Assembly: GCF_020480685.1 (NCBI RefSeq)
Contig: NZ_JAJAFU010000003.1
Coordinates: 1 to 64,000, forward strand
Length of the DNA stretch: 64,000 nucleotides
Reading direction: 5' to 3'
From: Deferrivibrio essentukiensis
Lineage (GTDB): Bacteria; Chrysiogenota; Deferribacteres; Deferribacterales; Deferrivibrionaceae
In this document: one piece after another, positions 40,552 through 62,095 of the stretch
How positions within the stretch are numbered: the first letter of the stretch is position 1
How the letters are laid out: each line of letters starts with the position of its first letter
Translations under genes and position numbers: made by a program
The notes under the pieces: generated by a model
The model's input: only the letters and a program-made list of their open reading frames with translations
What the model was told of the DNA's origin: nothing
Databases searched by the model: none

Positions 40552-40685
40552 CTCTGACAAACCTTCCAAAAAATTAAACTAAACTTTCATCATTTTGAAC
40601 CCACTCATAAGTTTTGCAATTAAAAAACATTTGATTTTTTGCCTATTTTCTAATATTTTAATTTTACTAAACTTGGGGGTATAGT

Positions 40686-41747
40686 ATGAACATATTAATA
40701 ATAGACCCTGGCTCCACATCTACTAAGGTTGGAATATTTAATGACAACCAATTAATAAAAGAAAATTTTAAACATGATAGAAGTGAAATTGAACAGTTTA
40801 AAACGATTATAGACCAGCTTAATTACAGGTTTAATATTATTAAACATTTTATACAAAACAACCACCCTTCCCTATCATTTAGCGCTGTCATCGGCAGAGG
40901 TGGACTGATTCACCCTGTTGAAGGGGGTGTTTATAGGGTTAATGATAAAATGTTGGAAGACTTGAAAGCCGGAATAAATGGTCAACACGCCTCAAACCTT
41001 GGTGGAATAATAGCAAAAAAATTTGCTGAGCAATATAATTGTGAGGCATTTATAGCTGACCCGGTAGTGGTTGATGAAATGATGCCTCTTGCAAAATATT
41101 CTGGACTTAAAGGGATAGAAAGAAAAAGTATTTTCCATGCTTTAAACCATAAAGCAACTGCAAGAAAAGTTGCAGAAAAAATAGGCAAATCTTATGAAGA
41201 GGTAAACTTTATAGTAGCTCATTTGGGTGGCGGTATATCAATTGGTATTCACAGCAAAGGGAAAGTTATCGACGTAAACAATGCGCTTGATGGTGACGGT
41301 CCATTCTCCCCTGAAAGAGCCGGGGGCTTGCCTGTATCTGGAATAAAGGATTATCTCTCAAAAAACAATATATCTATTGGTGAGCTCACTAAAATTGTGT
41401 CAAAACAAGCTGGGCTGATGTCCTACATCGGTAGCGTAGATATGATAAAAATAGAGGAAGATATAAAAAATTCTGATAAATACAAGGAAGAAGTTATTAG
41501 TGCGATGGCGTATCAAATTGCAAAAGAAATTTGCTCTCTTACTGCTGCAGTAAATGGACAGATAGATGGAATAATTCTCACAGGTGGCCTTGCTCATAGT
41601 AAATACCTAATTGACTTGATATCCAAAAGGGTGTCTTTTTTAGGTAAAATATATGTGGAGCCGGGTGAAAATGAAATTGAATCACTTTTGATGAGTGCAA
41701 AACTTGCTCTTCAAAATAAAATCCAAGTAAAGGAGTATCGGGGGTAG
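40686..41747 (+). CDS. buk: Butyrate kinase
   Basis: 353 residues of the acetate/butyrate kinase (ASKHA) fold. DPGSTSTKVGIF (residues 7-18) is the N-terminal phosphate loop; GRGGLIHPVEGGVY, VAHLGGGISIG and TGGLAHSKYLI identify butyrate rather than acetate kinase. It interconverts butyryl phosphate (or a branched-chain acyl phosphate) and ADP with the acid and ATP in the cytoplasm. The next gene, 2 bp downstream, carries the matching phosphotransbutyrylase domain, so the pair forms a complete acyl-CoA to acid module. Confidence 0.95.
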   Translation: MNILIIDPGSTSTKVGIFNDNQLIKENFKHDRSEIEQFKTIIDQLNYRFNIIKHFIQNNHPSLSFSAVIGRGGLIHPVEGGVYRVNDKMLEDLKAGINGQHASNLGGIIAKKFAEQYNCEAFIADPVVVDEMMPLAKYSGLKGIERKSIFHALNHKATARKVAEKIGKSYEEVNFIVAHLGGGISIGIHSKGKVIDVNNALDGDGPFSPERAGGLPVSGIKDYLSKNNISIGELTKIVSKQAGLMSYIGSVDMIKIEEDIKNSDKYKEEVISAMAYQIAKEICSLTAAVNGQIDGIILTGGLAHSKYLIDLISKRVSFLGKIYVEPGENEIESLLMSAKLALQNKIQVKEYRG

Positions 41748-41749
41748 TT

Positions 41750-43237
41750 ATGAGTATTGGTAATAACATCAAAAAAGTTTTATCCGAAAAAAACATAACA
41801 ATTGAAAACCTATCTAAATTTACAGGAATCGACGTATATCAACTATCAGATTACATAAATGAAAAATCCAGCCCCTCCGTATCAGACCTGTTGAAAATAG
41901 CATCTTGCCTTGATACCGATATATACTCCTTCATATACGGTCAAGAGTTTGAAGGGAAAAAGGCTCAAAAAACTACACCTGCTACAAGAGTAAAAATAAG
42001 TCGTAAAGATGCTTACTCTTATGAAAGTCTTGCCCCTCTTTACCCCGGAAAACATATTGAACCGTTTATTGTAGAAATTGAAAAAAAGGAGAATCCCGAA
42101 ATAAGCATCCATTCAGGTGAAGAGTTTCATTATGTTTTAGCAGGAAAACTAAAAATAACAGTGGGTGAAGAAGAGTTTATACTTGATGAAGGAGATAGCC
42201 TCTATTTTGACTCATCTGTTGCACATAGCATCAATTCCATAACTGAAAAATCAAGAATACTTGCTACGATATACAATAGCAGCTCAATGTCGCAACTAAC
42301 TAAAGGTTCAAAAATGAGAGATTTAATTCAGGCAGCCAAATTACTTAAGAAGCAATCTATTTGTTTAATCTGTCCTGACAAGACATCTGCCGGAGCCTGC
42401 AAGGTGGCAATAGATGAGAATATAATAGATAAAGTTGTGTTTGTGGGGGATAAAAAAATATCAGAAGCCCTTTTGAAAGATACCCGCATAAATGAAAAAA
42501 AGGTAATTTTAGTGGATATACCCCAATCTGATATATATGAAACAGACTGTGCCAGAAAAGGGGTCGAAATAATTAAGAATAAAGAAGCGACTTTGATAAT
42601 GAAGGGTAAAATCAACACTGCAAACTTTGTAAAAGCAATTTTGGATAAAGAGCGAGGCATTGCATCAGGGAGAAGGATGTCGCTGGTAAGCATTTTTGAA
42701 GTGCCAAATGTTAACAGGCTGATATTCCTTACGGACCCCGGCATAAACCCGACACTTTTTGTAGAAAATGATTTAAATGCAAGTATAGAAATCATTAAAA
42801 ATGCCATTGATGTTGCCAAATCTATGGGGGTAACAAGACCAAAGGTTGCACTTCTTGATGCTAATGAAGTCCCTTCAGCAAAATTACCAACCACACTGCA
42901 TGAAGATAAACTGTCTAAAATGGATTGGGAAGATGCGGATGTTTACGGACCACTTTCATATGACCTTGCACTCTATGAGGAAGCAGTTAAAAAGAAGGGG
43001 TTAACAGATAACCCGGTAGCAGGAAAAGCCGATATTATTGTGGTGCCTCACATAGAAGGTGGAAACTTCCTTTATAAGGCGTGGGTAATGACAATGGGAG
43101 CAGAAGTCGCAAATATTGTTTTGGGAGCTACCGTTCCAATAATACTTACCTCAAGAAGCGACAGTGATATGACAAAGTTTTTGACTATTTGTGCAAGTGC
43201 TATTTATGGGGAATATTTAAAAAGTACAAATAATTGA
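41750..43237 (+). CDS. HTH (XRE)-cupin-phosphate butyryltransferase fusion protein
   Basis: 495 residues in three parts. Residues 1-63 are an XRE-type helix-turn-helix (IKKVLSEKNITIENLSKFTG). Residues about 90-175 are a cupin with HSGEEFHYVLAG (His121, Glu125, His127) and AHSI (His159), in the manner of PuuR-type regulators. Residues about 190-490 are a phosphate acetyl/butyryltransferase with ICLICPDKTSAGACKVA, LIMKGKINTANFVKA, FLTDPGINPTL and NIVLGATVPIILTSRSDS. The enzyme part looks complete. The HTH-cupin part suggests DNA binding responsive to a small ligand, perhaps acting on its own operon (inference). I see no stop or frameshift between domains. Confidence 0.9.
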   Translation: MSIGNNIKKVLSEKNITIENLSKFTGIDVYQLSDYINEKSSPSVSDLLKIASCLDTDIYSFIYGQEFEGKKAQKTTPATRVKISRKDAYSYESLAPLYPGKHIEPFIVEIEKKENPEISIHSGEEFHYVLAGKLKITVGEEEFILDEGDSLYFDSSVAHSINSITEKSRILATIYNSSSMSQLTKGSKMRDLIQAAKLLKKQSICLICPDKTSAGACKVAIDENIIDKVVFVGDKKISEALLKDTRINEKKVILVDIPQSDIYETDCARKGVEIIKNKEATLIMKGKINTANFVKAILDKERGIASGRRMSLVSIFEVPNVNRLIFLTDPGINPTLFVENDLNASIEIIKNAIDVAKSMGVTRPKVALLDANEVPSAKLPTTLHEDKLSKMDWEDADVYGPLSYDLALYEEAVKKKGLTDNPVAGKADIIVVPHIEGGNFLYKAWVMTMGAEVANIVLGATVPIILTSRSDSDMTKFLTICASAIYGEYLKSTNN

Positions 43238-59599: not shown

Positions 59600-60139
59600 T
59601 TACATATTTTTTTTGGCAAGCTCCATACCAGCGTAAAGAGCCTTTTTATTGAGCTCTTCAGTCCCTTTTGGTACTTTACTTAGCACACCTTTTTCCAGTT
59701 TATCAACATCCAGCAGATTGGTAATTTGATTTACAACACCCAATGTTACAATGTTTGCTACCATCGACTTTCCAATATCTTCTGCTGCTGTCTTTATGAT
59801 TGGTAATGCATATACTTTAAAATTCCCCTTTGGAAGATCTTTTACAAGCATACTATCAACTATCACAACGCTACCTTCTTTAGCATCACCAATAAACTTA
59901 TCACATGCTTCTTGAGTAAGAGCAACGAGGACATCTGATTTTAAAACTTTTACATAGTTAATATCTTCATCACTTATTACGACCTCACCTCTGGCTGCGC
60001 CACCTCTTGCCTCAGGTCCATATGATTTTGTCTGCACAGCCTTTTTACCTGCAAATACAGCAGCATAGCCTAAGATTGCTGCTGCAGTAATAGTTCCTTG
60101 TCCACCTGAACCACCTAATCTTATATCAACTCTTGCCAT
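59600..60139 (-). CDS. korC: 2-oxoglutarate:ferredoxin oxidoreductase subunit gamma
   Basis: 179 residues. GGSGGQGTITAAAILGYAA (residues 8-26) and QTKSYGPEARGGAARGEVVIS are diagnostic of the gamma subunit of 2-oxoacid:ferredoxin oxidoreductases, and VDSMLVKDLP is a conserved mid-region. It is the last gene of the operon, 9 bp after korB. With the alpha, beta and delta subunits it interconverts 2-oxoglutarate, CoA and oxidised ferredoxin with succinyl-CoA and CO2. Confidence 0.92.
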   Translation of the reverse strand: MARVDIRLGGSGGQGTITAAAILGYAAVFAGKKAVQTKSYGPEARGGAARGEVVISDEDINYVKVLKSDVLVALTQEACDKFIGDAKEGSVVIVDSMLVKDLPKGNFKVYALPIIKTAAEDIGKSMVANIVTLGVVNQITNLLDVDKLEKGVLSKVPKGTEELNKKALYAGMELAKKNM

Positions 60140-60148
60140 CTTATACTC

Positions 60149-60958
60149 CTATTTTTTTAATCCAACAGTTGCATCATATGTTTCAATATACTCTGGTTTC
60201 TCTTCCTTATGAAGAACACCAATAGTAAACTTTCCAGCCAGTTCTTCTTCAGACATCTTCTTAGCTTTTTCAATATTAACTGCACTGTCTTTCATCCATA
60301 AAAGCATTGATGTAGGAGTCTTAAATTTATTCTTTCTACCAAAACCGGTTGGGCATGCGTTGATAATTTCAACTACACTTAAACCTTTATGTTGGAACGC
60401 TTCCTTCATTGTTTTTTCACAATGTGCAACATGGTATGCTGTAGTTCTTGCAACAAAGGTCGCTCCAGCACCAATTGCAAGGTCAGTAATTGTAAAGTTA
60501 TTTTCAGTCATACCATATGGTGCAGTTGTTGCCCATGCACCCTTTGGAGTTGTAGGAGAATATTGGGCACCGGTCATACCATAAATATTATTATTAAATA
60601 CAAACACCGTCATATCAATATTCCTTCTGCAAGCATGGATAAAATGATTACCGCCTATAGCAGTCATATCACCGTCTCCACCCATTGCAAGAACTTTCAA
60701 GTTTGGATTTGCCAACTTTATACCGGTAGCAAACGCAATTGATCTACCATGGGTAGTATGTAAAGTGTTAAAATCAACATATCCGGGCAAACGGCTTGCA
60801 CATCCAATACCTGAAACTATTGCAACATCATTTTTATCCCACTGTAAGGAACCTATTGCTCTGATGAGAGATTTCAATACGATACCGTATGTACAGCCTG
60901 CACACCAAATATGCGGCAGTTTCCCTTTTCTCAAATATTTAGCGTAATCGTAAGCCAT
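60149..60958 (-). CDS. korB: 2-oxoglutarate:ferredoxin oxidoreductase subunit beta
   Basis: 269 residues. WCAGCTYGIVLKSL (about 18-31) holds Cys ligands for a 4Fe-4S cluster, and the thiamine diphosphate and Mg site is GGDGDMTAIGGNHFIHACRRN followed by VFNNNIYGMTGAQ (about 93-130), with the GDGD...NNN pattern. The gene begins immediately after the korA stop. This type (separate alpha, beta, gamma, delta) fits KorABCD. The succinyl-CoA ligase genes upstream support 2-oxoglutarate rather than another 2-oxoacid. Confidence 0.93.
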   Translation of the reverse strand: MAYDYAKYLRKGKLPHIWCAGCTYGIVLKSLIRAIGSLQWDKNDVAIVSGIGCASRLPGYVDFNTLHTTHGRSIAFATGIKLANPNLKVLAMGGDGDMTAIGGNHFIHACRRNIDMTVFVFNNNIYGMTGAQYSPTTPKGAWATTAPYGMTENNFTITDLAIGAGATFVARTTAYHVAHCEKTMKEAFQHKGLSVVEIINACPTGFGRKNKFKTPTSMLLWMKDSAVNIEKAKKMSEEELAGKFTIGVLHKEEKPEYIETYDATVGLKK

Positions 60959-62095
60959 TTATACAAACCTCCTGATTTTTTCCAGGATTTCCCCGGGAAG
61001 GATAGGATCAAGCATTAAGCTATAAAGCCCCTCTACCCCACAGCGACCTTTTGCAACTCTTTGGACCTCAAAAGTCATCTGACCTAAGTTCATTTCAGGA
61101 ACTACGATACCTTTTACATTATTCTTGGATAATAACTTATCAAGATGTTTTTCCGGGAAAGGCCAAATTGTCAATGGTCTGACAAGGCCTGCTTTAATAC
61201 CCTGATTTCTTGCCTCAACTACTGCATGCTTAGCTGATCTTGCAGTAACCCCAATAGCAAATACAAGTACCTCTGCATCATCAGTCATAAATTCTTCTAC
61301 TTTAACTATATCATCATAGTTTTTATTTAGTTTTTCAATAAGTCTTACAGTATTTTTAGTATGAAGTTCAGGATCATTTGTGGGGAAACCATCTGCTGCG
61401 TGGTGTAAACCTGTTATGTGATACCTATATCCGGAACCAAAAGGTGGCATTGGATTAACATCTTTATCCATGTCATATGGCAGATACTCTTCCGGTTTAC
61501 AGTCAGGCATAAGTCTATCAACAACTTCCAATTCACCCGGTTCAGGGATAACTAATTGCTCCATCATTTGCCCTATGATTGAATCTGTAAGCACAAAAAC
61601 AGGACATCTATATTTTTCTGCGAGATTAAATGCCCTAACCGTTTCATCAAATTGCTCTTGAACAGATGCAGGAGTTACTGCTATAACTGGGTGGTCTCCA
61701 TGAGTACCCCATTTTGCCTGCATAATGTCTGACTGACTTGGGCCGGTTGGCATACCTGTAGAAGGTCCACCTCTCATTACATCAACAATTACACATGGAA
61801 TCTCACAAAGCATCGCATAACCAATATTTTCCTGCTTTAGTGAAAATCCCGGACCACTTGTAGCAGTCAAAGCTTTTGCACCTGCAATTGATGCACCTAT
61901 TACTGAAGCCATTGCAGCAATCTCATCTTCCATCTGTATAAACCTTCCACCAACTTGAGGTAACCTTTCAGCCATTCTTTCTGCTACTTCTGTTGAAGGT
62001 GTAATCGGGTATCCGCCAAAAAACTTGCAACCAGCATACAGTGCCCCTTCTGCGATTGCATAGTTACCCATCATAAATTCTACTTTTTTAGCCAC
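60959..62095 (-). CDS. korA: 2-oxoglutarate:ferredoxin oxidoreductase subunit alpha
   Basis: 378 residues: FFGGYPITPSTEVAE (about 25-39), TSGPGFSLKQENIGYAMLCEIP and DVMRGGPSTGMPTGPSQSD are characteristic of the KorA/PorA alpha subunit, and FVLTDSIIGQMMEQL and the C-terminal VPEMNLGQM are typical of the 2-oxoglutarate branch. The enzyme is oxygen-sensitive in most organisms, so a low-oxygen lifestyle is likely. It follows korD by 16 bp. Confidence 0.94.
   Translation of the reverse strand: MAKKVEFMMGNYAIAEGALYAGCKFFGGYPITPSTEVAERMAERLPQVGGRFIQMEDEIAAMASVIGASIAGAKALTATSGPGFSLKQENIGYAMLCEIPCVIVDVMRGGPSTGMPTGPSQSDIMQAKWGTHGDHPVIAVTPASVQEQFDETVRAFNLAEKYRCPVFVLTDSIIGQMMEQLVIPEPGELEVVDRLMPDCKPEEYLPYDMDKDVNPMPPFGSGYRYHITGLHHAADGFPTNDPELHTKNTVRLIEKLNKNYDDIVKVEEFMTDDAEVLVFAIGVTARSAKHAVVEARNQGIKAGLVRPLTIWPFPEKHLDKLLSKNNVKGIVVPEMNLGQMTFEVQRVAKGRCGVEGLYSLMLDPILPGEILEKIRRFV

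What the first reader, a model, noticed from the sequence alone, without database searches (positions are those of the whole stretch)
41750..43237. Transcription-regulator-like HTH and cupin fused to phosphotransbutyrylase
A DNA-binding domain, a small-molecule-binding cupin and a complete acyltransferase occur in one chain, directly after butyrate kinase. This could be a regulator that senses acyl-CoA or acid through its own enzyme domain (a self-regulating enzyme), or an enzyme gated by the cupin. It is the most system-like oddity in the window.
Basis: partly seen in the sequence, partly recalled or inferred. Interest (0 to 1): 0.7.

Follow-up and report, generated by a model that had tools for sequence, protein, structure and literature searches.

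The report
Butyryltransferase carrying a retired gene regulator
The gene after butyrate kinase really encodes a gene-regulator-like front end joined to an acyltransferase enzyme; the join is conserved in bacteria of three groups, but its DNA-reading part looks worn out, so it is more likely an enzyme with a built-in metabolite sensor than a regulator of its own gene.

Summary
ORF 41750-43237 is one 495-aa chain: XRE-type HTH (aa 1-66), cupin (about 95-178) and phosphotransbutyrylase (about 190-492). The same uninterrupted chain (50-92% identical) occurs in 19 other genomes of Deferribacterota, a Desulfurellales group and Spirochaetota, following buk in all but one spirochaete. In Deferribacterota, Buk occurs in exactly the nine genomes with the fusion.

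The self-regulator reading is weakened. The fused HTH is acidic (mean net charge -2.7; unfused XRE-cupins +2.8) and is the least conserved domain. Its recognition helix changes between sister species, while five unfused XRE-cupins in the same genomes keep theirs unchanged. An operator-like palindrome, TTTAGT-NNN-ACTAAA, does sit on the buk promoter. It recurs upstream of an operon encoding an intact XRE-cupin, a 2-oxoacid:ferredoxin oxidoreductase, Buk and the fusion. A separate XRE-cupin (paralogue C5b, helix intact in all three families checked) is the better candidate binder.

Best reading: a working Ptb for 2-oxoacid fermentation or acid activation, whose N-terminal half is a captured regulator kept as a ligand-sensing or assembly module after losing DNA recognition. 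Gating is inferred, not tested. New variant of a known kind.

The parts
40631..40659 (+). Putative promoter of buk-fusion: -35-like TTGATT (40631-40636), 17-base spacer, -10-like TATTTT (40654-40659)
   Evidence: TTGATTTTT lies at the same distance (55-58 bases) upstream of the buk start in seven genomes of two families; hexamers read by eye, transcription start not mapped
40657..40672 (+). Operator-like palindrome TTTAATTTTACTAAAC, overlapping the -10 (family consensus TTTAGT-NNN-ACTAAA; the left arm has one mismatch here)
   Evidence: Same position in 7 genomes. Strict pattern TTTARTTNNRCTAAAC hits only 9 places in 7 genomes, 5 of them upstream of or within the buk locus and 3 upstream of ald. 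Same motif on the VOR operon promoter in Desulfurellales
40686..41747 (+). Butyrate kinase (buk)
   Evidence: TIGR02707, 453.8 bits against cut-off 289.1; adjacent to the fusion in 19 of 20 genomes
41750..43237 (+). HTH-cupin-Ptb fusion protein, 495 aa
41750..41947 (+). XRE-type HTH domain (aa 1-66), five predicted helices, acidic and fast-evolving
   Evidence: Pfam; helices at pLDDT 82-89 for aa 1-40; charge and conservation
41825..41863 (+). Recognition-helix region GIDVYQLSDYINE (aa 26-38), not conserved between sister species
42032..42283 (+). Cupin domain (aa 95-178) with invariant H121, G123-E124-E125-F126, Y152-F153-D154-S155-S156 and H159
   Evidence: Pfam; invariant in 20 of 20
42317..43225 (+). 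Phosphotransbutyrylase domain (aa 190-492)
   Evidence: Pfam and NCBIfam, PDB 7vg9 E 6e-46, active-site residues

Best explanation
It is a functional phosphotransbutyrylase (acyl-CoA + Pi <-> acyl-phosphate + CoA) that works with the adjacent butyrate kinase. Its N-terminal half is an XRE-cupin transcription regulator captured by gene fusion from the lineage that controls 2-oxoacid:ferredoxin oxidoreductase operons. After the fusion the HTH lost DNA recognition but kept its fold, while the cupin kept its binding pocket; the pair now most likely serves as a ligand-sensing or assembly module that tunes the enzyme. Transcription of the operon is more likely controlled by a separate, intact XRE-cupin at the palindrome TTTAGT-NNN-ACTAAA. 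SHOWN: fusion, its conservation, the Buk partner, conserved catalytic and cupin residues, acidic and unconstrained recognition helix, shared palindrome. INFERRED: no DNA binding, ligand binding, gating, direction of the pathway, and which protein binds the palindrome.
For: Enzyme: Ptb is the most conserved domain (27% invariant columns against 21% cupin and 5% HTH). Residues of the Clostridium acetobutylicum enzyme (PMC9706017) D217, K228, N250, K254, S279, R280 and D282 are invariant in 20 of 20. Buk is present in exactly the 9 of 51 Deferribacterota genomes that hold the fusion; no unfused Ptb showed up in these genomes among the matches listed. HTH retired: net charge -2.65 against +2.82 and pI 5.2 against 9.2 for 22 unfused XRE-cupins. 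Within the genus, five unfused XRE-cupins keep a 13-residue recognition region identical in three genomes, while the fusion reads GIDVYQLSDYINE / GIDTQQLVDYLEE / GIEVSRLKDFITE and the buk palindrome stays nearly the same. In Desulfurellales the VOR-operon XRE-cupin HTH is 82-92% identical where the fusion HTH is 43-71% (three genome pairs plus further pairs). HTH is still under purifying selection (omega 0.03-0.24 in most pairs), so it is kept for something. Sensor: H121, E125, H159 and YFDSS are invariant in 20 of 20. Pathway: operons XRE-cupin - VOR/POR gamma - oxidoreductase - PorA - PorB - buk - fusion (L095) and iorA - iorB - ptb - buk - fusion (L093, L094). Origin: fused HTH-cupins form one clade (100/99) whose nearest rows are the VOR-operon regulators and the own-genome paralogue C5b (92/91).
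Against: No binding, activity or structure was measured. The charge and conservation comparisons use related sequences, not independent events, and an acidic HTH can still bind DNA. The buk palindrome is nearly unique to this operon in family f2, as expected of a local autoregulator. The Ptb domain does not reach the TIGR02706 equivalog cut-off (218.2 against 410.5 bits), and K186, S283, E285 and T286 of the clostridial enzyme are not kept throughout, so the substrate is uncertain. The AlphaFold model is poor overall (mean pLDDT 56) and says nothing on domain contacts.
Confidence: 0.6

Rival explanations
1. Autoregulatory bifunctional enzyme: the HTH binds the palindrome on the buk promoter and the cupin and/or the Ptb domain decide when it lets go, as in NadR- or PutA-like regulator-enzymes.
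For: A conserved palindrome sits on the promoter at the same position in two families and in f2 strict matches in promoters occur only there. XRE-cupins usually regulate neighbouring genes and bind palindromes as dimers (PMC7901475). HTH_3 is still recognised in 18 of 20 members and the HTH is under purifying selection.
Against: Acidic HTH; recognition helix changes in sister species while the operator barely does; the HTH is the least conserved domain; the same palindrome stands before an operon with its own intact XRE-cupin, and C5b with the helix GFSKALISQIENNV is kept in all three families.
Confidence: 0.2
2. Passive fusion: the HTH-cupin half only helps folding, thermostability or oligomerisation of Ptb and senses nothing.
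For: HTH under weak constraint; XRE-cupins act as dimers (PMC7901475) and the clostridial Ptb is built of dimers (PMC9706017); some HTH-cupin enzymes are known without regulation (methylphosphonate synthase 6b9s appears as a weak match).
Against: The cupin pocket residues H121, GEEF, YFDSS and H159 are invariant in 20 of 20 sequences of three groups, more than scaffolding needs.
Confidence: 0.15
3. The cupin is itself a second catalytic site, giving a bifunctional enzyme in acyl metabolism.
For: H121-x3-E125...H159 is spaced like a two-His-one-carboxylate metal site (spacing as recalled for HppE; a lead from memory), and the residues are invariant.
Against: The same residues are common in unfused XRE-cupin regulators of the same genomes; no operon gene calls for an oxygenase-like step in these anaerobes.
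Confidence: 0.05

Closest known systems
XRE-cupin transcription regulators (PuuR, PauR, ErfA, PsdR; PMC7901475)
   Same: Same HTH-cupin order, spacing and cupin pocket; regulators of this kind stand beside metabolic enzymes; nearest sequence relatives are unfused XRE-cupins of 2-oxoacid oxidoreductase operons
   Different: Fused to a 300-aa enzyme; HTH acidic with an unconstrained recognition helix
Phosphate butyryltransferase (Ptb; C. acetobutylicum 7vg9, Listeria 3tng, PMC9706017)
   Same: Full domain, most active-site residues, partner Buk
   Different: Extra 190-residue N-terminal half; below the TIGR02706 equivalog cut-off
Bifunctional enoyl-CoA hydratase/phosphate acetyltransferase (NF006045)
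   Same: A Ptb/Pta domain with an unrelated N-terminal domain fused to it; 209 bits over the Ptb part
   Different: The N-terminal partner there is a second enzyme, here a regulator-type sensor
Regulator-enzymes / trigger enzymes (NadR, PutA, BirA; from general knowledge)
   Same: HTH or other DNA-binding domain and metabolic enzyme in one chain
   Different: Those bind DNA at their own genes; here the evidence points to loss of DNA recognition
HTH-cupin enzymes (methylphosphonate synthase 6b9s; HppE from memory)
   Same: XRE-like helical domain plus cupin in an enzyme; weak sequence match (E 1.4e-4)
   Different: There the cupin is the catalytic site; here a separate Ptb domain is

Membership tests
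XRE-cupin transcription regulators | HTH_3/HTH_26 followed by Cupin_2 in one chain | tested here: met
   18 of 20 members for HTH_3, 20 of 20 for Cupin_2
XRE-cupin transcription regulators | Conserved, DNA-competent recognition helix in orthologues | tested here: not met
   Helix differs among three sister genomes while five unfused paralogues are identical; acidic HTH
XRE-cupin transcription regulators | Palindromic operator near its own operon | tested here: inconclusive
   Palindrome present, but shared with an operon that has its own intact regulator; the binder is unknown
XRE-cupin transcription regulators | Binds DNA and represses | not testable with these tools
   Needs gel shift or DAP-seq
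Phosphate butyryltransferase | PTA_PTB domain over its length | tested here: met
   PF01515 positions 29-315 of 319
Phosphate butyryltransferase | Active-site residues of the solved enzyme | tested here: met
   7 of 11 listed residues invariant in all 20 (D217, K228, N250, K254, S279, R280, D282); K186, S283, E285, T286 vary
Phosphate butyryltransferase | NCBIfam equivalog TIGR02706 cut-off | tested here: not met
   218.2 against 410.5 bits; exact substrate therefore open
Phosphate butyryltransferase | Butyrate kinase partner | tested here: met
   Adjacent in 19 of 20 genomes
Regulator-enzymes (trigger enzymes) | Same chain catalyses and controls transcription | not testable with these tools
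   Indirect evidence speaks against DNA binding

The most novel reading that the evidence does not exclude
Regulator capture: the sensor half of a repressor that governs a 2-oxoacid fermentation operon was fused to that pathway's last-but-one enzyme and lost its DNA-reading function, so that one kind of effector could control the pathway twice, through an intact XRE-cupin at the promoter and through the fused copy at the enzyme.
Probability: 0.35. Interest if true: 0.65.

Novelty: new variant of a known kind. Interest (0 to 1): 0.5.

Why it matters
If true, it gives a natural, testable example of a transcription-factor ligand module being turned into an allosteric enzyme module, with the un-fused relative still present in the same genomes and, in some bacteria, in the same operon. 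Comparing the two would show which ligand the family senses, and would show that an HTH found next to an enzyme should not be taken as proof of autoregulation.

Tried and rejected
Frameshift or start error: rejected, 20 genomes with one chain. Chance fusion in one strain: rejected. Conserved wider gene cluster: rejected in Deferribacterota, where only buk-fusion is shared between families. Regulon search with TTTAGTTNAACTAAA at two mismatches: uninformative, fewer hits than the reversed control in most genomes. Exact TTTAGTNNNACTAAA: several further hits are inside genes or in a repeated element of G010. AlphaFold from seven sequences: low confidence outside the HTH, so no fold search was run on it. 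A deeper model was not tried, because the allowed input named other sources than genome-search loci. Plasmid collection: 191 records with a Ptb-like match, none covering 80% of the query, so no fusion. Papers on Ptb with cupin and HTH, or with XRE family and fused: none found.

Full report
WHAT IS THERE. ORF 41750-43237 is a 495-aa chain two bases behind buk. It has an XRE-type HTH, a Cupin_2 domain and a complete PTA_PTB domain, all above Pfam cut-offs. The best solved relatives are clostridial phosphate butyryltransferase 7vg9 (E 6e-46) for the C-terminal part and a regulator of the HTH_3 family, 1y9q (E 1e-5), for the N-terminal part.

HOW WIDESPREAD. The same chain occurs in 9 of 51 Deferribacterota genomes (three families; 53-92% identical), 7 of 25 genomes of the Desulfurellales group and 4 of 393 Spirochaetota genomes, with no internal stops. 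These groups were reached through a scan that used peptides of the window protein, so other phyla may hold more distant members that were missed. No plasmid record carries it. Buk is adjacent in 19 of 20; the exception is spirochaete G332, where the fusion follows leuA. In Deferribacterota, Buk is found in exactly the nine genomes with the fusion, so the fusion is probably their working Ptb.

THE ENZYME HALF. Ptb is the most conserved part: 27% invariant columns against 21% in the cupin and 5% in the HTH. Using the residues listed for the clostridial enzyme (PMC9706017), D217, K228, N250, K254, S279, R280 and D282 are invariant in all 20; K186, S283, E285 and T286 vary. The domain scores below the TIGR02706 equivalog cut-off, so the acyl group is not settled.

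PATHWAY. In Desulfurellales genome G066 (L095) the order is XRE-cupin, PorC/VOR-type gamma subunit, NAD(P)-binding oxidoreductase with ferredoxin-like end, PorA/VOR alpha, 3-methyl-2-oxobutanoate/pyruvate oxidoreductase beta, buk, fusion. In spirochaetes G447 and G453 it is iorA, iorB, an unfused ptb, buk, fusion. This points to oxidation of 2-oxoacids from amino acids to acyl-CoA, then acid and ATP. A described relative, Deferrivibrio metallireducens, ferments proteinaceous substrates and also uses butyrate (PMC11896075), so the reverse direction, acid activation, is equally possible. That the window genome belongs near this genus is inferred from the titles of its relatives.

THE HTH HALF IS NOT BEHAVING LIKE A DNA READER. 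The HTH carries a mean net charge of -2.65 (pI 5.2) against +2.82 (pI 9.2) in 22 unfused XRE-cupins of related genomes; the rows are related, so the rank test given there overstates significance. In the window's genus, five unfused XRE-cupins keep a 13-residue recognition region identical across three genomes, while the fusion reads GIDVYQLSDYINE, GIDTQQLVDYLEE and GIEVSRLKDFITE. In Desulfurellales, the operon's unfused XRE-cupin has an HTH 82-92% identical between genomes in which the fused HTH is 43-71% identical; in the closest pair both are 97%. The HTH still evolves under purifying selection, but usually faster than the rest, and its helices are predicted with good confidence in an otherwise poor model. 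A domain kept for its fold, not for its DNA contacts, fits this best.

THE CUPIN. H121, G123-E124-E125-F126, Y152-F153-D154-S155-S156 and H159 are invariant in 20 of 20. The pocket is therefore maintained; the ligand is unknown.

THE SITE UPSTREAM. The buk promoter carries a palindrome at the same place in seven genomes of two families, TTTAATTTTACTAAAC at 40657-40672 in the window. The strict family pattern hits 9 places in seven genomes: five in the buk locus, three before alanine dehydrogenase in the window's genus, one inside a gene. One of the five (G013:C41, reverse strand) is the overlapping reverse reading of the buk site. The same arms, TTTAGT-NNN-ACTAAA, sit on the promoter of the VOR operon in G064, its only exact genome-wide match, and with one mismatch in G066 and G062 (p about 0.01 each against first-order resampled sequence; these p-values are per region and not corrected). 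That operon begins with an intact XRE-cupin. Its relative C5b, with the helix GFSKALISQIENNV, is present in all three fusion-bearing Deferribacterota families and lies nearest the fusion in the HTH-cupin tree together with the VOR regulators. I therefore assign the site to the intact regulator, as a hypothesis.

VERDICT. Real and conserved; not shown to be a self-regulator; most likely an enzyme with a captured, DNA-blind regulator module. Earlier description of this architecture was not found in the open library, which lacks most subscription journals.

Noticed in passing
G000:C5:124032-124047 (locus L109, 5033-5048): Perfect palindrome TTTAGTTTAACTAAAC just upstream of alanine dehydrogenase in the window's genus, the same motif as on the buk promoter: a possible small amino-acid fermentation regulon.
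   Followed up: partly
L093 7923-8819 and L094 4612-5508: Spirochaete operons iorA-iorB-ptb-buk-fusion encode two Ptb proteins side by side, one unfused and one HTH-cupin fused.
   Followed up: no
L092 5061-8265: In spirochaete G332 the fusion follows 2-isopropylmalate synthase (leuA) instead of buk; its buk lies on another contig.
   Followed up: no
L010 378-3274, L011 3078-5979, L096 2354-5279: In another Desulfurellales subgroup buk-fusion follows a phosphoglycerate-mutase-like histidine phosphatase, a LUD-domain protein and a DUF815 ATPase.
   Followed up: no
window 59600-62095 (-): A 2-oxoacid:acceptor oxidoreductase (alpha subunit passes the NF006412 cut-off) lies about 16 kb from the fusion, on the other strand.
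   Followed up: no
G010:C2:119488, C5:366106, C7:2437, C8:179453, C10:102 and C10:62090: Six identical TTTAGTATCACTAAA copies, next to transposase-like ORFs in the two copies looked at, probably part of a repeated mobile element.
   Followed up: partly
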